Shown here in pieces: positions 4,286 through 11,705 of a stretch of 11,762 nt of DNA. Each line of letters starts with the position of its first letter. Position 1 is the first letter of the stretch. The translations under genes were made by a program, and so were the position numbers. The notes below the pieces were generated by a model, which worked only from the letters and a program-made list of their open reading frames with translations, did not search any database and was not told where the DNA came from. Source of the DNA: Candidatus Bathyarchaeota archaeon (GTDB lineage Archaea > Thermoproteota > Bathyarchaeia > Bathyarchaeales > Bathycorpusculaceae). The stretch spans positions 11,621 through 23,382 of the forward strand of contig JAGTRA010000003.1 in NCBI GenBank assembly GCA_018396935.1, written 5' to 3'.

Positions 4286-4346
4286 TTTATTGTACAAAAA
4301 GTTAAATGAATACATTAAAATAACTTTGAAAGTTTTAAAAGAAACC

Positions 4347-5271: not shown

Positions 5272-5764
5272 GTGTGCAAAATAAAGGCTGGATATATCAG
5301 TGCATGCATTACAAAATCGTTGGCTTTAATTGTTGGCATTGCTGCATTGATTGCGAGTAACATTAATGTTTCAATGAGGTATATTTTGGATGGGACGTAT
5401 AGTGGCGGGATACCATTGGCGATGCATCCTCGCAATCAATCCGCCTCCGCATTGTACGTGGGGTCGACGCCCCTTCCGGAATTACCCGATGGCCCACATA
5501 GGATAGATGTCTACTGCAGAATAGAAATAGATAGTGTCGGCATAAATGGCGTTTACTATCAAAAATATGTTTGCCAACGTAACGCCACAGTTTACTTTAC
5601 CGTTAACACAACTTCCTCAATAACGCCCAACTCACCGCCCGAAACCCAACAATCAAAGCCTTCCATAAACCCCAAAATTAGCTGAAACAGCCATAGCGAT
5701 AATGACCATTGGAGCTGCAGTCCTTTTACCCAAAATTTTGGTGGGCCGGGCCGTATGCAATTAA
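5272..5764 (+). pseudogene. Truncated, frameshifted surface protein (Ig-like domain plus TM remnant)
   Basis: A GTG start at 5272 opens a hydrophobic signal-like segment (residues about 14-32). It is followed directly by a beta-sandwich-like stretch: RYILDGTYSGGIPL, then ALYVGSTPLPELPDGPHRIDVYCRIEI, then ATVYFTVNTT and a Pro/Thr/Ser-rich stalk. Such Ig-like units end many archaeal surface proteins just before a C-terminal membrane anchor. The open frame stops at 5683-5685, but the +1 frame across the AACCCCAAAATT stretch continues as LAETAIAIMTIGAAVLL, a membrane segment. That frame runs into the 40-bp repeat at 5741 and stops at 5762-5764. The gene therefore seems to have a one-base insertion, a C-terminus replaced by the repeat, and probably a deletion after the signal peptide. 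Alternatively it is a small secreted protein; the start codon is uncertain. Confidence 0.55.
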
Positions 5765-5780
5765 AAAATTAAGTGAATCC
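5741..5780 (+). repeat. 40-bp direct repeat copy A with tRNA-Ile 3'-end core (att-like)
   Basis: This is identical to 8400-8439 except one A/G change. Its first 13 bp (GTGGGCCGGGCCG) equal the tRNA-Ile 3' end on the opposite strand, and with the left flank (5737-5753) the match to 10611-10627 is 17 bp. The remaining 27 bp, beginning TATGCAATTAAAAA, are not tRNA-derived and look like an element arm. A 12-bp palindrome CCAAAATTTTGG (5730-5741) abuts the repeat. Confidence 0.8.
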
Positions 5781-5790
5781 CATGGTCGTT

Positions 5791-5810
5791 GCTTGATCTT
5801 CTCATCAAGC
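5791..5810. repeat. Perfect hairpin just inside repeat A
   Basis: GCTTGAT (5791-5797) and ATCAAGC (5804-5810) form a 7-bp stem with a 6-nt loop, 10 bp beyond the repeat and about 55 bp before the peptidase start. It might be an operator, a recombination-directionality site or an RNA hairpin. Confidence 0.4.
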
Positions 5811-5866
5811 CGAAAATGCAGTAAGGCTTATTAAATCAATGTGAAATCAATTTATAGTGGAAGGCT

Positions 5867-7247
5867 ATGCACCGACCGGGATTCTGGTGTTATGTAGGCT
5901 TATTATTTTCATTACTGTTGGCTGTTGTTGGTTCTGTAAATGTCTGCTCCGGGCTCAATGCGTCTGTAGTTTACGGCATTCCGGCTCAGCTTGAGGGCTC
6001 TGAGGCCCAGTTGGCTATTGAGGTTTGCAGCTACATTGCCCAGCCTTTTTTCTCAGACTGGCAGGTACGCTTACGTAGGCAACCTATGCGGTGCGTACAC
6101 GCAGAACTGCTACGTCTACTATATTGCGGAATATTTTGAAACATATCCATATGATTTTGTAGCCATCTATTATAGGGGGCACTCAGTATATAGGAAACCC
6201 GATCAAGATCCATATTACCACCACAACCACACGTTTCTCTATGACAACGATGGCGGGCTTAGGCACTGCGACAGAATATATGACGCGCAGATTGGGGCTA
6301 GGACGCTGAATGCCAGGCACAAGTTCGTGGTCCTATGGAGTTGTGGAACAGCGAACGAGGATCAAACCGGAGAGGTGATAGGCTCGATAGCGCAGCTTGT
6401 TAGGAACGGGGGATTTGAAAGCGGGAGCAGCTATTGGGTTCTTGGAGGTGATGGCGATCGCACGGTCACGAATGAGGATAGGCTTTTTGGCTCGTACTCG
6501 CTATTGCTTGGCTTCAAAACTGCAGCCCTAGGTAAGGACAAATTCGCCTACGCCTATCAGCTCATAAGCTTACCAGCAGGGGTCCAAGCATGGTTAACCT
6601 TTTGGTACCATCTATACACTTACGACAGAGCCGATTATGATAGGTTTGAGGTTTACATCACGCCAGTTGGGGGCAACCCCACGAGGGTGTTCTACAAGGG
6701 AGGAACTGCCCGAGGCAGCTTGACAGAGTTTAAGTGGCTTGAGGACCAGGTTATAATAGACCTGAGCGCTTATGCTGGTCAAAGCATATACTTATACTTC
6801 AGAGTGATCAACGGAGGGGACGCATACTATAGAACGTGGTGTTACATAGACTACGTGTCTGTAACAACGGGCCACACATGGGGCATGGCGGCGTCATGGA
6901 TCAAAAGGACGAAACAGCAAGGCCTAAGCCTAGACGGATACGCCAGGCCAGACGGAAGCGGAAGATGCTTCATAGGCTGGCAATACTACTCCATGCCACT
7001 AAGCAATGCAACGGGATACGGAACATATACATACGCGGAATTCGTTAAAAGGTTCTACCATTATTTATTGGTGGAACGTAAATCTGTTAAAGATGCGCTT
7101 GACTCTGCATCATATGAGTGTATAGGTGTTCGCTATTTTTATCAAACAAGAATCTATCAAGGCTGGTGGCAGTATTTCCCAGAGCAAAATGTTACGCTTT
7201 ATTGTAAAGTTAGAGTATGGGGAGATGGAGGCATGACTTTGCCATGA
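5867..7247 (+). CDS. Secreted caspase-fold-like cysteine peptidase candidate with inserted beta-sandwich domain; one frameshift
   Basis: ATG 5867 opens a signal peptide (hydrophobic GLLFSLLLAVVGSV). The frame is lost at a T6 run (6046-6051); dropping one T restores a 459-aa protein ending at TGA 7245-7247. In restored numbering, a strand ends in VAIYYRGH with His105, and a second in FVVLWSCGTA with Cys159. The His-Gly-type motif followed about 50 residues later by a strand and Cys-Gly recalls caspase/gingipain/clostripain-like peptidases, so this is proposed as a cysteine peptidase. Residues about 177-334 are an inserted domain. After it come WGMAASWIKRTK, a GYARPDGSGRCFIGWQYYS stretch and a C-terminal helix plus GDGGMTLP. 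The paralogue at 9692-10489 has the same His, Cys and C-terminal motifs without the insert. TTATTAAA near 5826-5836 may be the TATA box. The stop overlaps the next start (ATGA). Confidence 0.62.
6396..6869 (+). other. Inserted carbohydrate-binding/MAM-like beta-sandwich domain inside the peptidase candidate
   Basis: The segment begins LVRNGGFESGSSYWV and ends with YRTWCYIDYVSVTTG. In between are GSYSLLLGF, an AYAYQLISLPAG strand, AWLTFWYHLYTYD, and a YAGQSIYLYFRVINGGD strand. This pattern (NGGFE-W start, LTFWY middle, IDYVSV end) is typical of jelly-roll carbohydrate-binding or MAM-like modules on secreted enzymes. It interrupts the peptidase domain between the Cys motif and WGMAASW. The shorter paralogue lacks it, which marks it as an insertion that may target the enzyme to glycans. 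Confidence 0.6.
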
Positions 7248-8344
7248 GATATATTGTCTTTGTTCTGCTTGTTTCTCTGTTGCTTTTTCAGGCTTTGCCA
7301 TGGGCTGGTGGTTTTACATTTTCAGGACCTAGCCGACCAGACCTTGTGCTCTCGTTTCTCAGGGAGGTTATCCTGCTAGACCTCTCAAAGTATAATGTAA
7401 CCCTTCTGTTTGATGGCCTCACATTAGACCACAATAGAACTCGGTTTAAGCTTGAAGAGACTGGGGGCTATGTGGAGGTTGACTGCCGCTTCAAGGGTTC
7501 CTTTATGACCTGGTGTATGATCAGCAAGTATGGGAACGCTGCGCTTCATTATGTTGAGGCTGAGCCCGAGAGCTACGTTGAAAGAGTGAGAAAGCTCCTT
7601 GATAGGTATGAGGGATGGTCTGGAGACACAGCCTACAAGGAGATTAGGAATATCCTGTGGCTTGTCACGAAGGAAAAGAACCAAACAATCGTCCATGGAA
7701 GCTTGAAGCTTACGATTTCAATTTGCGAGCCCTTTGTGGACTTTCAATGGTATCGCATAATCATGGTTGACGGCTACAGCGTTGAGCTGCCCAGCCTAGG
7801 CATAACATTTGAGGGAGGCGAGCTACATATACTCGGTGATACATATAGGCCATTTAAGGTTGGAAATACAAGCCTAAAGATATCCAAGGAGGAGGCTATT
7901 GGGATGGCGCGTAGGCTTGCGGGTAATTTTTCGTGGAAGGTTGGCGTTGAGCCAAATGTAACTGTTGTTAGGGAGTTTAAGGTCCTCGAAGAGCCTGTTC
8001 AGGCCAGCCTAAGCCTCTGGGAGAGGGAGCCGCTTACGCTGTATCCCCACTGGCATGTCACGTTATACTTGGACAAGACATACCCGGGCTTCGTTACAGG
8101 GATAATGGTTGGTATCTGGGCTGACACAGGCGAAACACACTATATAAAGCCACTCGTAGCCTCAGGATACCCAACACCACCCCAAGAAACAGCCGGGGAA
8201 GACTTATCCAAAGAACAGCCCCTGCAGCCAGGCCAAATGGTCATAATCGTCGCGGCCCTAACAACAGCCGCAGCCATAAGCCTACTAGCCGCAAAGAAGA
8301 TGCGCCGCAAAGCATCCCCAACCAAACCAGCAAACCATAATTGA
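7244..8344 (+). CDS. Membrane-anchored extracellular protein with PepSY-like domain (cassette 1 partner)
   Basis: The 366-aa reading starts at ATG 7244, which overlaps the upstream stop as ATGA, with GGAGATGGAGG 12 or more nt ahead. This implies translational coupling. An ATG at 7217 would add 9 residues ahead of the signal peptide and is less likely. Residues 1-22 are a signal peptide. A novel N-terminal domain follows (LREVILLDLSKYNVTL, VDC-x9-C). Residues about 211-300 resemble PepSY: ISKEEAIGMARRLAG, then YPHWHVTLYLDKTYPG and VGIWADTGE. A Pro/Gln-rich linker and a C-terminal TM (about 332-351) with a basic tail anchor it outward. Several N-x-S/T sequons fit glycosylation. PepSY domains occur in peptidase propeptides and can inhibit peptidases, so it may restrain or fold the upstream enzyme. 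Its paralogue lies at 8569-9672. Confidence 0.75.
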   Translation: MRYIVFVLLVSLLLFQALPWAGGFTFSGPSRPDLVLSFLREVILLDLSKYNVTLLFDGLTLDHNRTRFKLEETGGYVEVDCRFKGSFMTWCMISKYGNAALHYVEAEPESYVERVRKLLDRYEGWSGDTAYKEIRNILWLVTKEKNQTIVHGSLKLTISICEPFVDFQWYRIIMVDGYSVELPSLGITFEGGELHILGDTYRPFKVGNTSLKISKEEAIGMARRLAGNFSWKVGVEPNVTVVREFKVLEEPVQASLSLWEREPLTLYPHWHVTLYLDKTYPGFVTGIMVGIWADTGETHYIKPLVASGYPTPPQETAGEDLSKEQPLQPGQMVIIVAALTTAAAISLLAAKKMRRKASPTKPANHN

Positions 8345-8377
8345 CCGCACAATCACCCTAAAATCTCAACGCTTGCT

Positions 8378-8400
8378 CTCAAGCACACGAAAAGCTTGAG
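8378..8400 (+). terminator. Hairpin after cassette 1, abutting repeat B
   Basis: CTCAAGC (8378-8384) and GCTTGAG (8394-8400) form a perfect 7-bp stem with a 9-nt loop, 34 bp after the PepSY-like gene stop and touching repeat B. No T-run follows, so it may be a recombination-site feature as well as or rather than a terminator. Confidence 0.4.
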
Positions 8401-8439
8401 TGGGCCGGGCCGTATGCAATTAAAAAGTTAAGTGAATCC
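8400..8439 (+). repeat. 40-bp direct repeat copy B with tRNA-Ile 3'-end core (att-like)
   Basis: Second copy of the 5741-5780 repeat, 39/40 identical and in the same orientation. Its first 13 bp equal the tRNA-Ile 3' end (10615-10627). It sits in the gap between two convergent gene pairs. Confidence 0.8.
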
Positions 8440-8568
8440 TCTTGAAACTCATTCTTATTATTTTGTAATGCGCTTGAAATTACGAGTTTACGTTTTATTT
8501 GAGACGCTTGTTGGATCTGCATGTGATTTATTTGGGTGAAAATGTAGAAATAGAAAGGGTGCTTAAGG

Positions 8569-9672
8569 TTACTTGCCTCTTTTCTTGGTATAAATGACAA
8601 CCATCACTATAAAAGTTATTGCCGCTAAAACCGCCAAGGCAGTCATATAAGGTGATATTGAGTGTTCGGTGGTTGCACTGCCGCTTCGGGTGTTATCATC
8701 TGGTGGAGGATAGAGACCGCCTGCTGCTTGGTTATTGCAGAAGAAGACTTCGCCGTTATCCGCCCATACCCCAACCAAAAGGGCGTAGACACCCCCAGGG
8801 TATGTCTCATTAAGATATAGCGTAACACTCCAATAGGGATAAAGAACGTTAGCATATTTCACCGCTGGAAACAGCTCTGCAACTGCCCGATCCTTGCTTA
8901 CATTAAAATTGGATATCCTTGTCATGTCAGGCATAAGATAGGAATAGTTCTTGACATATTCCATCGCAATTTCTATGGCTTGTTCCTTGGAAATATTCAC
9001 AGAAGTATCCCCTATGACATATACCACGCGATGGTCGACCATTCCATGGAGAACCCCATTAAGGAAACCAATATCTAGCACCAGATATTCACATCCATTG
9101 TAGACCCGTGTCCAACGGAACCTTACCTTGTCGCCAAACGGTGGGATGGAAGAACGCTTGGTCTCTATGGTCAGCTTTAGGGAACCTGAAACGAGCGTTA
9201 CGTTTTTCAGCGAGTTAACTTTATGCAACAGTTCTATCATGTCCGCCAAATTTGTTTTATAGTAGGATTGGTATTTCTTGAGAAAACCTTCAGCCGCATC
9301 AATAGGGTCAGAATAATGCCTGTCTAAAATAACTGATCCACTACGAACTTCTAGAAAACAACCGCTCACAGCACCATTTGTAACTGTACATATTACCTCA
9401 AGAGTACCCTTATTTGACTCTAAAGTGTATGTTAAAACCTCTTTCTTAAAACCTTTTAGAGGATTCACCCCAATGTCGGACGGCAACTTCACTTCACCAT
9501 AACTCTTAAGAGTTAGGTTGTATTGGGAAAGGTCTATTGGAAGCACGTTAGAAATGAACTCTAATCCCTTAGCATTAGCCGTTGAAAAATCAGACCGTAC
9601 CACGTAAACGGTTTCAAAAGATATTAAAATGGCGATAAAACCCCAAAAAATAATTTTGTTCGATTGTTTCAT
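8569..9672 (-). CDS. Membrane-anchored extracellular protein with PepSY-like domain (cassette 2 partner)
   Basis: The protein is 367 aa from ATG 9672, where GGTGAAGGAG lies just upstream; the ATG at 9687 would add five residues and has no clear ribosome site. Residue numbers below count from 9687. It has an N-terminal signal/TM segment (about 11-30) and a domain paralogous to the 7244 gene: SNVLPIDLSQYNLTL, then C100 and C110 with the same 10-residue spacing as in the paralogue. Both share SGSLKLTIE/HGSLKLTIS. A PepSY-like region (about 226-316) holds ISKEQAIEIAMEYVKN, YPYWSVTLYLNETYPGG and VGVWADNGEV. A Pro/Ser-rich linker precedes a C-terminal TM (about 347-366) and the tail TKKRGK. It starts within 20 nt of the upstream peptidase-candidate stop, so the pair is probably co-translated. 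The role proposed is inhibitor or chaperone of that enzyme at the cell surface. Confidence 0.75.
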   Translation of the reverse strand: MKQSNKIIFWGFIAILISFETVYVVRSDFSTANAKGLEFISNVLPIDLSQYNLTLKSYGEVKLPSDIGVNPLKGFKKEVLTYTLESNKGTLEVICTVTNGAVSGCFLEVRSGSVILDRHYSDPIDAAEGFLKKYQSYYKTNLADMIELLHKVNSLKNVTLVSGSLKLTIETKRSSIPPFGDKVRFRWTRVYNGCEYLVLDIGFLNGVLHGMVDHRVVYVIGDTSVNISKEQAIEIAMEYVKNYSYLMPDMTRISNFNVSKDRAVAELFPAVKYANVLYPYWSVTLYLNETYPGGVYALLVGVWADNGEVFFCNNQAAGGLYPPPDDNTRSGSATTEHSISPYMTALAVLAAITFIVMVVIYTKKRGK

Positions 9673-9691
9673 CTTCTCCTTCACCATCCAA

Positions 9692-10489
9692 TTAGTAATT
9701 CAAAGTCATATACCTGTTACCCCAGACTATCAAGGAGTCATAAAGTGGGCAAGATTCGAAATCATAAGTACCGTATATTTCTTGTGCTAAATAGTTAAGA
9801 GTATACCAGACATCCCAACCATAGTAGTGCATGCAGTAAAAGAAGTAGCAGGCAAAGTGAGCATATTGCCATGGGGGATGGCCAGGGATCTCACTTTCGA
9901 ACTGAGGGGATAACCAAATCCATCCTAAATAAACGCATGGGCCACTGGTTCCATATTTGGTCATTGCGACGTTGTGAGTGAACGCTAGTGGCAATCCAAT
10001 GGGTCCATCAACGTCTCGGTAGGGAGGCGGGACGGGGTAACTTCGAGCTGTGCCGCAATGCCAAATAAAGCAGAACCGACATTTGGCTTGATTAGTATAG
10101 GGGAATATGTGTATGGAGTCTTTAGCCGCATCTGGATAGAAAGTGCATAAAAGTTGATAGTGAACGCCATAAGTGCCCCACGGGGTGCAATGTCCTTTTG
10201 AAAAAACTGTTACCTTGTCAGAGCTTTGTTCCAAAGCATAAAGAGTATTGCTGTAAGTGCTGGCCGTAACTACAGGATCGCCATCAAAAGGATCCCCATA
10301 GTAGAAATAGCAATACCCAGGATAATAATGCTCCCAGAGATACATAGCAATGTAATAACATGTATAAGTTGACAGCACAATCTCATTATACGTGTCACCA
10401 GGAGGATTTTCAGGTATATAGCGGTTAGGACAGAAAACCCCGCTGCCATAATAAGCGTTAACGAATTTTATGCCGATTAAATGCGACAT
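9692..10489 (-). CDS. Caspase-fold-like cysteine peptidase candidate, short form lacking signal peptide and inserted domain
   Basis: This 265-aa protein is paralogous to the 5867-7247 product. His100 lies in TVFSKGHC and Cys145 in CFIWHCGTA, mirroring VAIYYRGH and FVVLWSCGTA with similar spacing. Downstream similarities are CVYLGWIW versus CFIGWQYY, a helix with YAHFACYFFYCMHYYG, and the end WGNRYMTLNY versus WGDGGMTLP. There is no jelly-roll insert. It begins at MSHLIGIKFVNAYYG with no signal peptide, although its partner is membrane-anchored. A TATA-like TTTATTTATA lies only 12-20 bp before this ATG, too close for a normal start. The frame upstream is open for 16 codons to a TAA but has no ATG. 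The gene may have lost its 5' end, or may use another start. It is very rich in Cys and Tyr, suggesting disulfides and an exported fate. Confidence 0.62.
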   Translation of the reverse strand: MSHLIGIKFVNAYYGSGVFCPNRYIPENPPGDTYNEIVLSTYTCYYIAMYLWEHYYPGYCYFYYGDPFDGDPVVTASTYSNTLYALEQSSDKVTVFSKGHCTPWGTYGVHYQLLCTFYPDAAKDSIHIFPYTNQAKCRFCFIWHCGTARSYPVPPPYRDVDGPIGLPLAFTHNVAMTKYGTSGPCVYLGWIWLSPQFESEIPGHPPWQYAHFACYFFYCMHYYGWDVWYTLNYLAQEIYGTYDFESCPLYDSLIVWGNRYMTLNY

Positions 10490-10560
10490 CCCAAAAAGCT
10501 TATAAATAAAAGCGCTAACGCTCGACTCCGAGCTTTACGACTTTCACTTCTTAACATTTT

Positions 10561-10589
10561 TATCAAAATTTTTAGAAAATTGTTTGATA
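10561..10589. repeat. Inverted repeat downstream of tRNA-Ile
   Basis: TATCAAAATTTT (10561-10572) pairs with AAAATTGTTTGATA (10576-10589) with a 2-nt bulge and a 3-nt loop. On the minus strand it lies 24 nt after the tRNA-Ile end and before the cassette 2 promoter. It could be a terminator for the tRNA transcript or a protein-binding site of the element end. Confidence 0.35.
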
Positions 10590-10610
10590 TTTAAAGATTC
10601 TGCTCAAGAA

Positions 10611-10627
10611 TTTGGTGGGCCGGGCCG
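10611..10627. repeat. tRNA-Ile 3'-end core shared with repeats A and B (attachment-site candidate)
   Basis: TTTGGTGGGCCGGGCCG is identical over 17 bp to 5737-5753, and its last 13 bp to 8400-8412. On the minus strand it covers the last base pairs of the T stem, the acceptor 3' strand, the discriminator and CCA of tRNA-Ile. tRNA 3' ends are classical archaeal integration sites. Confidence 0.6.
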
Positions 10628-10690
10628 GATTTGAACCGGCGACCTTTCGGTTATCAGCCGAACGCTCCAACCAAGCTGAGCTACCGGCCC
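10613..10690 (-). tRNA. tRNA-Ile (GAU)
   Basis: The complete cloverleaf reads on the minus strand: acceptor GGGCCGG/CCGGCCC, D stem GCTC/GAGC, anticodon stem TTCGG/CCGAA with loop CTGATAA (anticodon GAT), and T arm GCCGG-TTCAAAT-CCGGC, discriminator A. There is no intron. CCA follows the discriminator directly (plus 10613-10615), so it appears encoded, unlike the neighbouring tRNA-Arg. A TATA-like CTTAAAAAG (about 10715-10724) lies 25-30 bp upstream. Confidence 0.95.
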
Positions 10691-10824: not shown

Positions 10825-10900
10825 GGGCCCGTGGCCCAGTCAGGATCAAGGCGCCGGCCTTCGGAGCCGGAGAACGTGGGTTCAAATCCCACCGGGCCCG
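10825..10900 (+). tRNA. tRNA-Arg (UCG)
   Basis: The full cloverleaf has acceptor GGGCCCG/CGGGCCC, an imperfect D stem (GCCC/AGGC), anticodon stem CCGGC/GCCGG with loop CTTCGGA (anticodon TCG, reads CGA), and T arm GTGGG-TTCAAAT-CCCAC, discriminator G. There is no intron and no encoded CCA. Confidence 0.95.
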
Positions 10901-10982
10901 CTCATCAAATGGATCCAAATTACCTTCTCCACTTTTAATTCCTGAGAATACTTATTCTTGGGTGTTAAAGTGAGGAATCTTA

Positions 10983-11339: not shown

Positions 11340-11705
11340 TTAGCGCGCGATGTATGGTTTTTTAACTTGTTCTACAGCCTTTAGAGCTGCTATCTTCGGC
11401 ATGTAGTGGCTTATTGTAAGGATTGTTCCCCACGTGGCTAGTGTGACAATTGACATGGCTGATCCTACAGTGGCCATTTCATGAAGCATTACTGGTATGT
11501 CTGCAGGGTTCGCCATCGCCGTTAGGAATGGTGGCCATGGGACTACTTCGGCATGCCATACGTGCTCTAACGCTAACAATATTACGCCTCCCCATAATAG
11601 CGCGTTAAGAATCCAAAGCTTCAACTTCTCAGCAAGGCTTCGCGCCGTCTTCTGTATGAGTGATGTGATGATTGCCAGAGCCATAGGAACTAAGAAACAT
11701 GCCAT
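11340..11705 (-). CDS. Small uncharacterised membrane protein (121 aa)
   Basis: ATG 11705 is preceded by GGAGG (11713-11717, spacing 7) and a TATA box at about 11731-11738, so the start is well supported. The protein has hydrophobic segments at about 2-18, 31-48 and 77-98. Between the second and third lies a motif-rich loop, EHVWHAEVVPWPPFLTAM then ADIPVMLHEMA, containing three histidines and a tryptophan/proline cluster. The His/Glu content of the loop could hold a metal or quinone site, but I do not recognise the family and assign no function. It ends with a basic tail (VEQVKKPYIAR). Confidence 0.78.
   Translation of the reverse strand: MACFLVPMALAIITSLIQKTARSLAEKLKLWILNALLWGGVILLALEHVWHAEVVPWPPFLTAMANPADIPVMLHEMATVGSAMSIVTLATWGTILTISHYMPKIAALKAVEQVKKPYIAR

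What the first reader, a model, noticed from the sequence alone, without database searches (positions are those of the whole stretch)
5737..10690. Two tandem elements apparently integrated at the tRNA-Ile 3' end, each carrying a peptidase/PepSY-like pair
A 40-bp repeat (39/40) lies at 5741 and 8400. Its start matches the tRNA-Ile 3' end by 17 bp (A) and 13 bp (B), all in one orientation. Reading left to right gives core+arm, cargo 1, core+arm, cargo 2, core+tRNA body. This is the layout left by two elements that share one attachment arm and insert one after the other at a tRNA 3' end. Both segments are small (about 2.7 and 2.2 kb) and lack a visible integrase, so they would be mobilised in trans. 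Cargo-only tandem elements encoding secreted proteins would be unusual.
Basis: partly seen in the sequence, partly recalled or inferred. Interest (0 to 1): 0.85.

Follow-up and report, generated by a model that had tools for sequence, protein, structure and literature searches.

The report
Tandem tRNA-integrated gene islets in Bathyarchaeia
Two small gene islets sit one behind the other at the end of a transfer-RNA gene in an uncultured archaeon; they belong to a family of DNA elements that insert themselves at several such genes, apparently with a dedicated enzyme, which these two islets no longer carry.

Summary
The 40-bp repeat is a 13-bp tRNA 3'-end core plus a 27-nt element arm (E1). In the loci held, the arm stands at 25 distinct archaeal sites; at 18 the 12 bases beside it match one of four tRNA 3'-end types within 2 mismatches, 15 exactly. 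A relative (G117) holds both ends of a 56-kb element on one contig: core + E1; and E2 (inverted arm), a 435-aa XerA-like tyrosine recombinase and intact tRNA-Ala. Tandem E2-core-E1 junctions occur in two other MAGs, and in 9 of 29 other loci the gene flanking the tRNA-Val insertion faces a tRNA 3' end directly, as an empty site would. So the window holds two successive insertions with different cargo at tRNA-Ile. 'Mobilised in trans' is not shown: both units lack E2, the own genome (75% complete) has no match to this recombinase at 1e-15, and relatives show eroded integrases. Most likely they are relics. A sister unit in the same genome (C133) keeps both arms around only a peptidase/PepSY-like pair, so cargo-only satellites remain possible.

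The parts
5737..5753 (+). core A: displaced copy of the tRNA-Ile 3' end (13-bp core 5741-5753; 17-bp match with CCA and AAA)
5754..5780 (+). element arm E1, copy A (tRNA-distal end of unit 1)
5867..7247 (+). unit 1 gene 1: secreted peptidase candidate; start and body lie in two frames (5867-6139 and 5991-7247), so probably frameshifted
8400..8412 (+). core B: displaced copy of the tRNA-Ile 3' end between unit 1 and unit 2
8413..8439 (+). element arm E1, copy B (tRNA-distal end of unit 2)
8440..8631 (+). stretch shared with the unit at G000:C108 (8406-8631 aligned, 91% identical), including the last 20 or so codons of the unit 2 PepSY-like gene
8569..9687 (-). unit 2 gene 2: PepSY-like secreted protein
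9692..10489 (-). unit 2 gene 1: peptidase candidate; predicted fold weakly resembles caspase/gingipain; H100 nearly invariant, C145 invariant
10613..10690 (-). tRNA-Ile(GAT), the integration target; core at 10615-10627; no E2 arm follows it
10825..10901 (+). tRNA-Arg(TCG), divergent neighbour of tRNA-Ile, also so placed in G117, G121 and G007

Best explanation
The window carries two successive site-specific insertions at the 3' end of tRNA-Ile by a family of integrative elements of Bathyarchaeia and neighbouring archaea. The complete attachment site is E2 (GGATTCACTTAAAAATTTAA or close variants) - 13-bp core equal to a tRNA 3' end - E1 (TATGCAATTAAAWAATTAAGTGARTCC), so that inverted TTAAGYGAATCC-type arms flank the core. 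A 435-aa XerA-like tyrosine recombinase encoded just inside E2 recombines the core with the matching tRNA gene: the tRNA stays whole beside E2, and a short core copy is displaced to the far side of E1. A second insertion uses the regenerated tRNA end, giving core-E1-unit 1-core-E1-unit 2-tRNA. Shown by sequence: both ends, the recombinase gene, one 56-kb element with both ends on a contig, flanks that abut a tRNA directly in relatives, tandem junctions. Inferred: that this enzyme catalyses the reaction, and that both window units, which lack E2 and any integrase, are now immobile remnants whose E2/int side was deleted, leaving cargo.
For: Arm at 5 places in the own genome: Ile/Val-type core twice, Ala-type once, a core with 3 mutations at C108 and C133; in 11 of 162 genomes of the order, own included, reversed control 0; 14 of 16 genome contigs stretches archaeal. 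Cores: 15 of 25 arm sites exact, 18 of 25 within 2 of 12 bases, 14 of 23 exact against 0 of 322 control 12-mers. G117:C4: identical cores 55,981 bp apart with E1, E2, recombinase, tRNA-Ala(GGC). E2 or its Ala variant + recombinase beside tRNA-Ile, Val(TAC), Val(GAC), Ala(GGC). Recombinase: NCBIfam XerA_Arch 1.7e-10 but below its cut-off (82), PDB profile hit to archaeal Xer 7.6e-9 (83), Foldseek XerA 5.6e-8 with TM 0.30 (98), invariant R148, K193, R270, H297, Y305 in 21 sequences (78). The gene next to the arm in G118:C2, G121:C4 and G000:C108 faces a tRNA 3' end within 120 bp in 9 of 29 non-own loci. Tandem E2-core-E1 junctions in L029 and L035. Same ClC-channel-like cargo (84-91% identical DNA) in integrase-broken units at tRNA-Ala of the own genome and beside an Arg-type core of a Nitrososphaeria MAG.
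Against: E2 and integrase are absent from both window units, so their membership rests on core + E1. Other tRNA-linked E1 units also lack E2: L015, L036, L101, L103. Seven of 25 arm sites have no good core: 3 at three mismatches, 4 at five or more. No circular form was seen, and no empty tRNA-Ile site was looked for. In G000:C133 the core beside E1 does not match the tRNA-Val(GAC) at the other end; that contig may be a rearrangement or a mis-assembly. No viral contig gave the arm by exact pattern or a relative of the recombinase. In 20 of 29 non-own loci the gene next to the arm shows no tRNA core within 120 bp (4 of these have one at 0.9-1.5 kb; some are cut by contig ends).
Confidence: 0.82

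Rival explanations
1. The units are live cargo-only satellites: they keep just enough of the attachment site to be excised and inserted by the recombinase of a co-resident or incoming complete element (archaeal cis-mobilizable elements).
For: Unit G000:C133 (2.7 kb) has E1 and E2 around only a peptidase/PepSY-like pair; no integrase piece was found in it. Units with different cargo share near-identical arms at several tRNAs in a genome without a match to this recombinase. The start of unit 2 recurs at the C108 locus. Tandem arm arrays without an integrase among ORFs of 120 aa or more also occur in genus g11 (L231).
Against: Window units lack E2. Integrase remnants in L029, L099, L035 and G000:C110 show decay in place. 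The own genome is 75% complete and has no match to this recombinase at 1e-15.
Confidence: 0.3
2. Casposon-like insertion: Cas1 integrase, terminal inverted repeats and a target-site duplication at a tRNA 3' end.
For: 13-bp duplication and inverted terminal arms at tRNA 3' ends.
Against: No Cas1 match in 5 of 9 genomes searched, G117, G118, G007, G121 and G000; the other 4 have Cas1, in G015, G119 and G165 on contigs other than those where I found the arms (for G164 I did not check). A tyrosine recombinase sits at the element end instead.
Confidence: 0.02
3. Plain chromosomal tandem duplication of a gene pair that carried a tRNA fragment along.
For: Two related gene pairs in tandem with a 40-bp repeat.
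Against: The PepSY-like proteins are 35% identical and the pairs lie in opposite orientation, yet the arms are 39/40 identical; the arm recurs at other tRNAs with unrelated cargo.
Confidence: 0.02
4. The 27-nt arm is a regulatory or terminator element of tRNA genes rather than part of an insertion.
For: AT-rich, and on the same side of the core.
Against: It lies beside displaced partial cores, and the tRNA ends printed are not followed by it; the 56-kb element ends there.
Confidence: 0.02

Closest known systems
Archaeal tyrosine-recombinase integrative elements at tRNA genes (pT26-2 family, thaumarchaeal integrated elements; PMC8371274 sections 24 and 31 and passages, PMC6563490 section 6 and passages)
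   Same: Insertion at tRNA 3' ends with a short direct repeat; related integrases using several tRNAs; tandem insertions; copies thought to have lost the integrase gene.
   Different: Conserved inverted arms flank a 13-bp core, and arms of this family stand at Ile, Ala and Val genes within one genome. The integrase gene is not split by the attachment site. Units of 2-3 kb with cargo alone stand in tandem.
ssrA genomic islands of Dehalococcoides (PMC3146451, passages read)
   Same: Tandem islands at one RNA gene, bounded by copies of its 3' end; 15 reported without integration modules and suggested to be cis-mobilizable.
   Different: Bacterial, one target gene, a CcrB-like recombinase (serine type: recalled); here a tyrosine recombinase and several tRNA genes in archaea.
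Casposons
   Same: Inverted terminal arms and a short direct repeat; tandem insertions (PMC6563490 section 6).
   Different: No Cas1 in five element-bearing genomes; a tyrosine recombinase instead.
Integrons (recalled)
   Same: Cassette-like units added one after another at a fixed platform.
   Different: Platform is a tRNA gene; no integrase gene beside the array in the window; attC-type folded sites not tested.

Membership tests
tRNA-targeting tyrosine-recombinase integrative element | intact tRNA at one end, partial 3' copy at the other | tested here: met
   window; G117:C4
tRNA-targeting tyrosine-recombinase integrative element | element-encoded tyrosine recombinase | tested here: not met
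   not met for the window units; met for family members in G007, G117, G118
tRNA-targeting tyrosine-recombinase integrative element | empty target site in relatives | tested here: met
   tRNA-Val locus: 9 of 29 non-own loci within 120 bp; not tested for tRNA-Ile
tRNA-targeting tyrosine-recombinase integrative element | excised circular form | not testable with these tools
   needs reads or PCR
cis-mobilizable element | retains functional sites at both ends, no integration or transfer genes | tested here: inconclusive
   window units have core + E1 but no E2; sister unit C133 has both arms
casposon | Cas1 integrase | tested here: not met
   no Cas1 match in G117, G118, G007, G121, G000 (5 of 9 genomes searched)
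integron | integrase gene beside the array platform | tested here: not met
   none found in the window; own genome has 3 PF00589 matches, all on other contigs
integron | attC sites recombining as folded single strands | not tested
   no folding test was run
clan CD cysteine peptidase (unit gene 1) | caspase-like fold with His/Cys dyad | tested here: inconclusive
   Foldseek caspase-9 E 2.8e-4 with TM 0.41, gingipain E 0.048; H100 nearly invariant, C145 invariant; no PDB sequence hit at E 1

The most novel reading that the evidence does not exclude
Bathyarchaeia run a tRNA-anchored cassette system: minimal cargo units carrying only the element's arms are captured one after another at tRNA genes by a recombinase supplied by larger elements (56 kb in G117, about 21 kb in G094), so that tRNA genes act as platforms for arrays of swappable secreted-protein cassettes, in at least two related arm families (window type and the g11 type of G079).
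Probability: 0.28. Interest if true: 0.78.

Novelty: new variant of a known kind. Interest (0 to 1): 0.55.

Why it matters
It gives an uncultured archaeal class a concrete gene-acquisition route: a defined attachment site, a candidate recombinase without a Pfam match, a reference element with both ends, and older remnants at the same tRNA loci. It makes testable how an archaeal integrase family tolerates several tRNA targets, and whether archaea keep cargo-only satellites. The arms are specific enough to serve as a search tag for mobile cargo in MAGs.

Tried and rejected
Casposon: considered because of inverted ends and the 13-bp duplication; no Cas1 match in five of the nine element-bearing genomes searched. 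Viral origin: no arm by exact pattern and no recombinase relative in viral contigs; ten chosen proteins of the 56-kb element against PHROGs gave ParB, DNA ligase, protease, endonuclease, integrase and unknown families, no capsid or terminase, so the element type is left open. Common PF00589 integrases as the enzyme: 14 of 17 genomes have them and many lie beside tRNAs, but none of the 30 loci L049-L078 carried the arm; the recombinase beside E2 had no Pfam hit. Hef-like helicase beside the arm as a single-copy host gene: rejected because G007 and G118 carry two copies and G163 and G165 carry a separate diverged Hef (42% and 34% identical, against 89% and 81% for the element copy). My early idea of inverted repeats at both ends of every unit failed: the window units have no E2. 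A genome-wide E2 search (26 of 162 genomes with up to 3 mismatches; control hits in 4 genomes) is not used as a count, because its hits include reverse readings of E1 and a different palindromic motif of genus g11.

Counts: one search merged two sites by its duplicate filter (L043 with L001, L009 with L004), so (25 sites) is the better count; neither counts the L029 arm at 2277, which has a shorter spacer, nor the two bacterial chance hits L033 and L038. In one search the g11 arm is a palindrome, so its 61 readings include both strands of many sites; 24 of 61 lie within 2 mismatches of a tRNA 3' 14-mer against 1 of 1066 controls, and one of the 24 (L222) is a window-type variant. The search for homologous proteins timed out.
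Full report
WHAT IS THERE. The window (G000:C82:11621-23382) comes from an archaeal MAG of 1.08 Mb, 75% complete. A relative of the same family, G121, has contigs with the length and sequence of records titled Candidatus Bathyarchaeota, so the host is taken to be Bathyarchaeia. tRNA-Ile(GAT) lies at 10613-10690 on the minus strand, with tRNA-Arg(TCG) divergent beside it, an arrangement also seen in G117, G121 and G007. Left of it are two copies of a 40-bp repeat (5741 and 8400; 39 of 40 identical): a 13-bp core equal to the tRNA-Ile 3' end and a 27-nt arm, here called E1.

THE ARM MARKS AN ELEMENT END. The arm occurs five times in the own genome: beside an Ile/Val-type core twice (window), an Ala-type core (C101), and a core with three mutations at C108 and C133. 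It occurs in 11 of 162 genomes of the order, own included, and in 16 stretches of genome contigs, of which 14 are archaeal (titles: Bathyarchaeota, Brockarchaeota, Nitrososphaeria, uncultured archaeon) and 2 bacterial without a core, taken as chance. Over all loci held there are 25 distinct arm sites; the 12 bases beside the arm equal one of four tRNA 3' ends (Ile/Val-TAC, Val-GAC, Ala, Arg-TCG) at 15, differ by one base at 2, by two at 1, by three at 3, and by five or more at 4. In one search (23 sites, compared with 39 tRNA 3' ends) 14 were exact against 0 of 322 neighbouring 12-mers. Sites were selected on the arm alone, so the core is independent evidence.

THE OTHER END AND THE ENZYME. 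In the own genome, tRNA-Val(GAC) on contig C133 is followed directly by TTAAATTTTTAAGTGAATCC (E2), an inverted version of the inner half of E1, and tRNA-Ala(CGC) on C110 by the variant TTAATTTTTTAAGCGAATCC. E2 or this variant follows intact tRNA-Ile, Val(TAC), Val(GAC), Ala(GGC) and Ala(TGC) in relatives, and just inside it starts a 435-aa protein in G007 (twice), G117 and G118. It has no Pfam hit at E 0.01 (protein 10). An NCBIfam XerA_Arch match (1.7e-10, under that model's cut-off), a PDB profile hit to archaeal Xer (7.6e-9), a Foldseek match to XerA (5.6e-8, TM 0.30 on a model of pTM 0.56) and five invariant residues R148, K193, R270, H297, Y305 in 21 sequences mark it as a tyrosine recombinase. 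In G117:C4 both ends are on one contig: core GTGGACCGGGCGG at 11539 + E1 at 11552, and E2 + the same core in tRNA-Ala(GGC) at 67520, 55,981 bp apart. Tested proteins of that element include a Rad51-family protein, ParB-like, primase-like, type I methylase and specificity proteins, an intein-bearing subtilase and a second integrase. In nine other arm loci DNA of a Hef-like helicase gene adjoins E1 (L015, L019, L020, L021, L028, L035, L036, L106, L107; family).

EMPTY AND OCCUPIED SITES. The gene beside the arm at G118:C2, G121:C4 and G000:C108 (a conserved 250-aa protein; DUF2110 is my recall) was searched in 40 relatives: 31 have it and 30 loci were held. In 9 of the 29 non-own loci a tRNA 3' end of the Ile/Val type faces it within 120 bp of the matched stretch (ARAGORN calls Val(TAC) in 3, Val(GAC) in 1, Ala(AGC) in 1 and nothing in 4; one is cut by a contig end); in 4 it lies 0.9-1.5 kb away; in 16 no such end is in the fetched flank. 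So in the three occupied genomes the element sits between a tRNA core and that gene. The empty tRNA-Ile site itself was not looked for.

TANDEM ARRAYS ELSEWHERE. L029 (Nitrososphaeria MAG, Arg-type core) and L035 (Ala-type core) show the junction that tandem insertion predicts, E2-core-E1. In genus g11 a related arm (inner half TTAAGCGAATCC) stands beside Arg-type cores; 6 of 32 genomes have it, G079 at 21 places with up to 3 mismatches. On G079:C81 three copies are spaced 2733 and 2366 bp, with a transporter + DsbA-like pair in one unit and a secreted protein in the next (names by eye) and no integrase among ORFs of 120 aa or more. G094 has such an arm about 21 kb from a tRNA-Arg(CCG) that has a relative (51%) of the recombinase beside it.

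WHY THE WINDOW UNITS ARE PROBABLY RELICS. Neither the tRNA-Ile end nor the left side of copy B carries E2: the best match has 8 of 20 mismatches, the shuffled mean being 8.3. The tRNA-linked units L015, L036, L101 and L103 lack E2 as well. Integrases of this family are seen in decay: broken in L099 and internally deleted in L029, reduced to pieces in L035 and in G000:C110. The C110 unit, at tRNA-Ala(CGC), shares ClC-channel-like cargo at 84-91% DNA identity with L029, beside an Arg-type core in a MAG outside the own order, so elements with this cargo moved between lineages and tRNAs and the integrase was lost or broken in both. Against a pure relic view: 8406-8631 of unit 2, with the last 20 or so codons of its PepSY-like gene, recurs at the C108 locus, and unit C133 keeps both arms around only a peptidase/PepSY-like pair.

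CARGO. The PepSY-like gene is found in 65 of 162 genomes; in 12 of 19 non-own loci fetched a peptidase homologue lies beside it, so the pair is common outside these elements. Units 1 and C133 are related to unit 2 in the PepSY-like gene (1.1e-36 and 1.8e-12); for the peptidase, unit 1 and C133 match each other (2e-18) but unit 2 and C133 only weakly (4e-4). The unit 2 peptidase model (pLDDT 81) resembles caspase-9 and gingipain weakly.

PRIOR WORK. PMC8371274 (sections 24 and 31 and passages read) reports tandem integration, presumed integrase loss, and one family using 14 different tRNA genes. PMC6563490 (section 6 and passages read) reports thaumarchaeal elements with short sites, several tRNA targets and tandem insertions. 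PMC3146451 (passages read) reports tandem ssrA islands, 15 without integration modules. The searches listed no paper whose title or abstract start describes this family; this covers listings from the held open library only. The kind is known; the arm design, its presence at several tRNA genes of one genome, and small cargo-only tandem units in archaea make it a variant.

Noticed in passing
G000:C108 and C133 (L017:5853-5967, L018:1-115): Two contigs share 115 bp of left flank (one mismatch) up to inside the arm and then carry different cargo: two strains, a rearrangement between two tRNA-Val loci, or a mis-assembly.
   Followed up: partly
window 5867-7247: The unit 1 peptidase gene has its signal-peptide start and its body in two reading frames: probable frameshift or sequencing error.
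   Followed up: no
L231 (G079:C81), L232, L233, L266-L268: Genus g11 genomes carry a related palindromic arm beside tRNA-Arg-type cores, at 21 places in G079, with tandem cargo-only units; why it is so dispersed is unexplained.
   Followed up: partly
L222:1159 (G142:C40): An arm variant TATGCGATTAATTTTTTAAGCGAATCC directly follows an Ile/Val-type core: a third arm version outside the counted 25.
   Followed up: no
L016:7037-7291 (G000:C101): C-terminal piece related to a different, common tyrosine-recombinase family ends about 40 bp from the Ala-type core: two element families stacked at one tRNA site. Members lie near Leu, Arg, Pro, Thr, Phe and other tRNAs in these genomes.
   Followed up: partly
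L026 1-110 (JAGLGJ010000052.1): A tRNA 3' end is followed by E2-like and E1-like arms within about 55 bp with no proper core between; unexplained.
   Followed up: no
L135 (G118:C1, near tRNA-Arg GCG): An integrase with a different N-terminal part but a C-terminal tail nearly identical to the arm-family recombinase: module exchange.
   Followed up: no
L143:5060-7672 (G117:C4): Subtilase-family protein with an intein in the 56-kb element.
   Followed up: no
window 4296-4311: AAAAAGTTAAATGAAT resembles part of the arm without a core beside it; probably chance.
   Followed up: no
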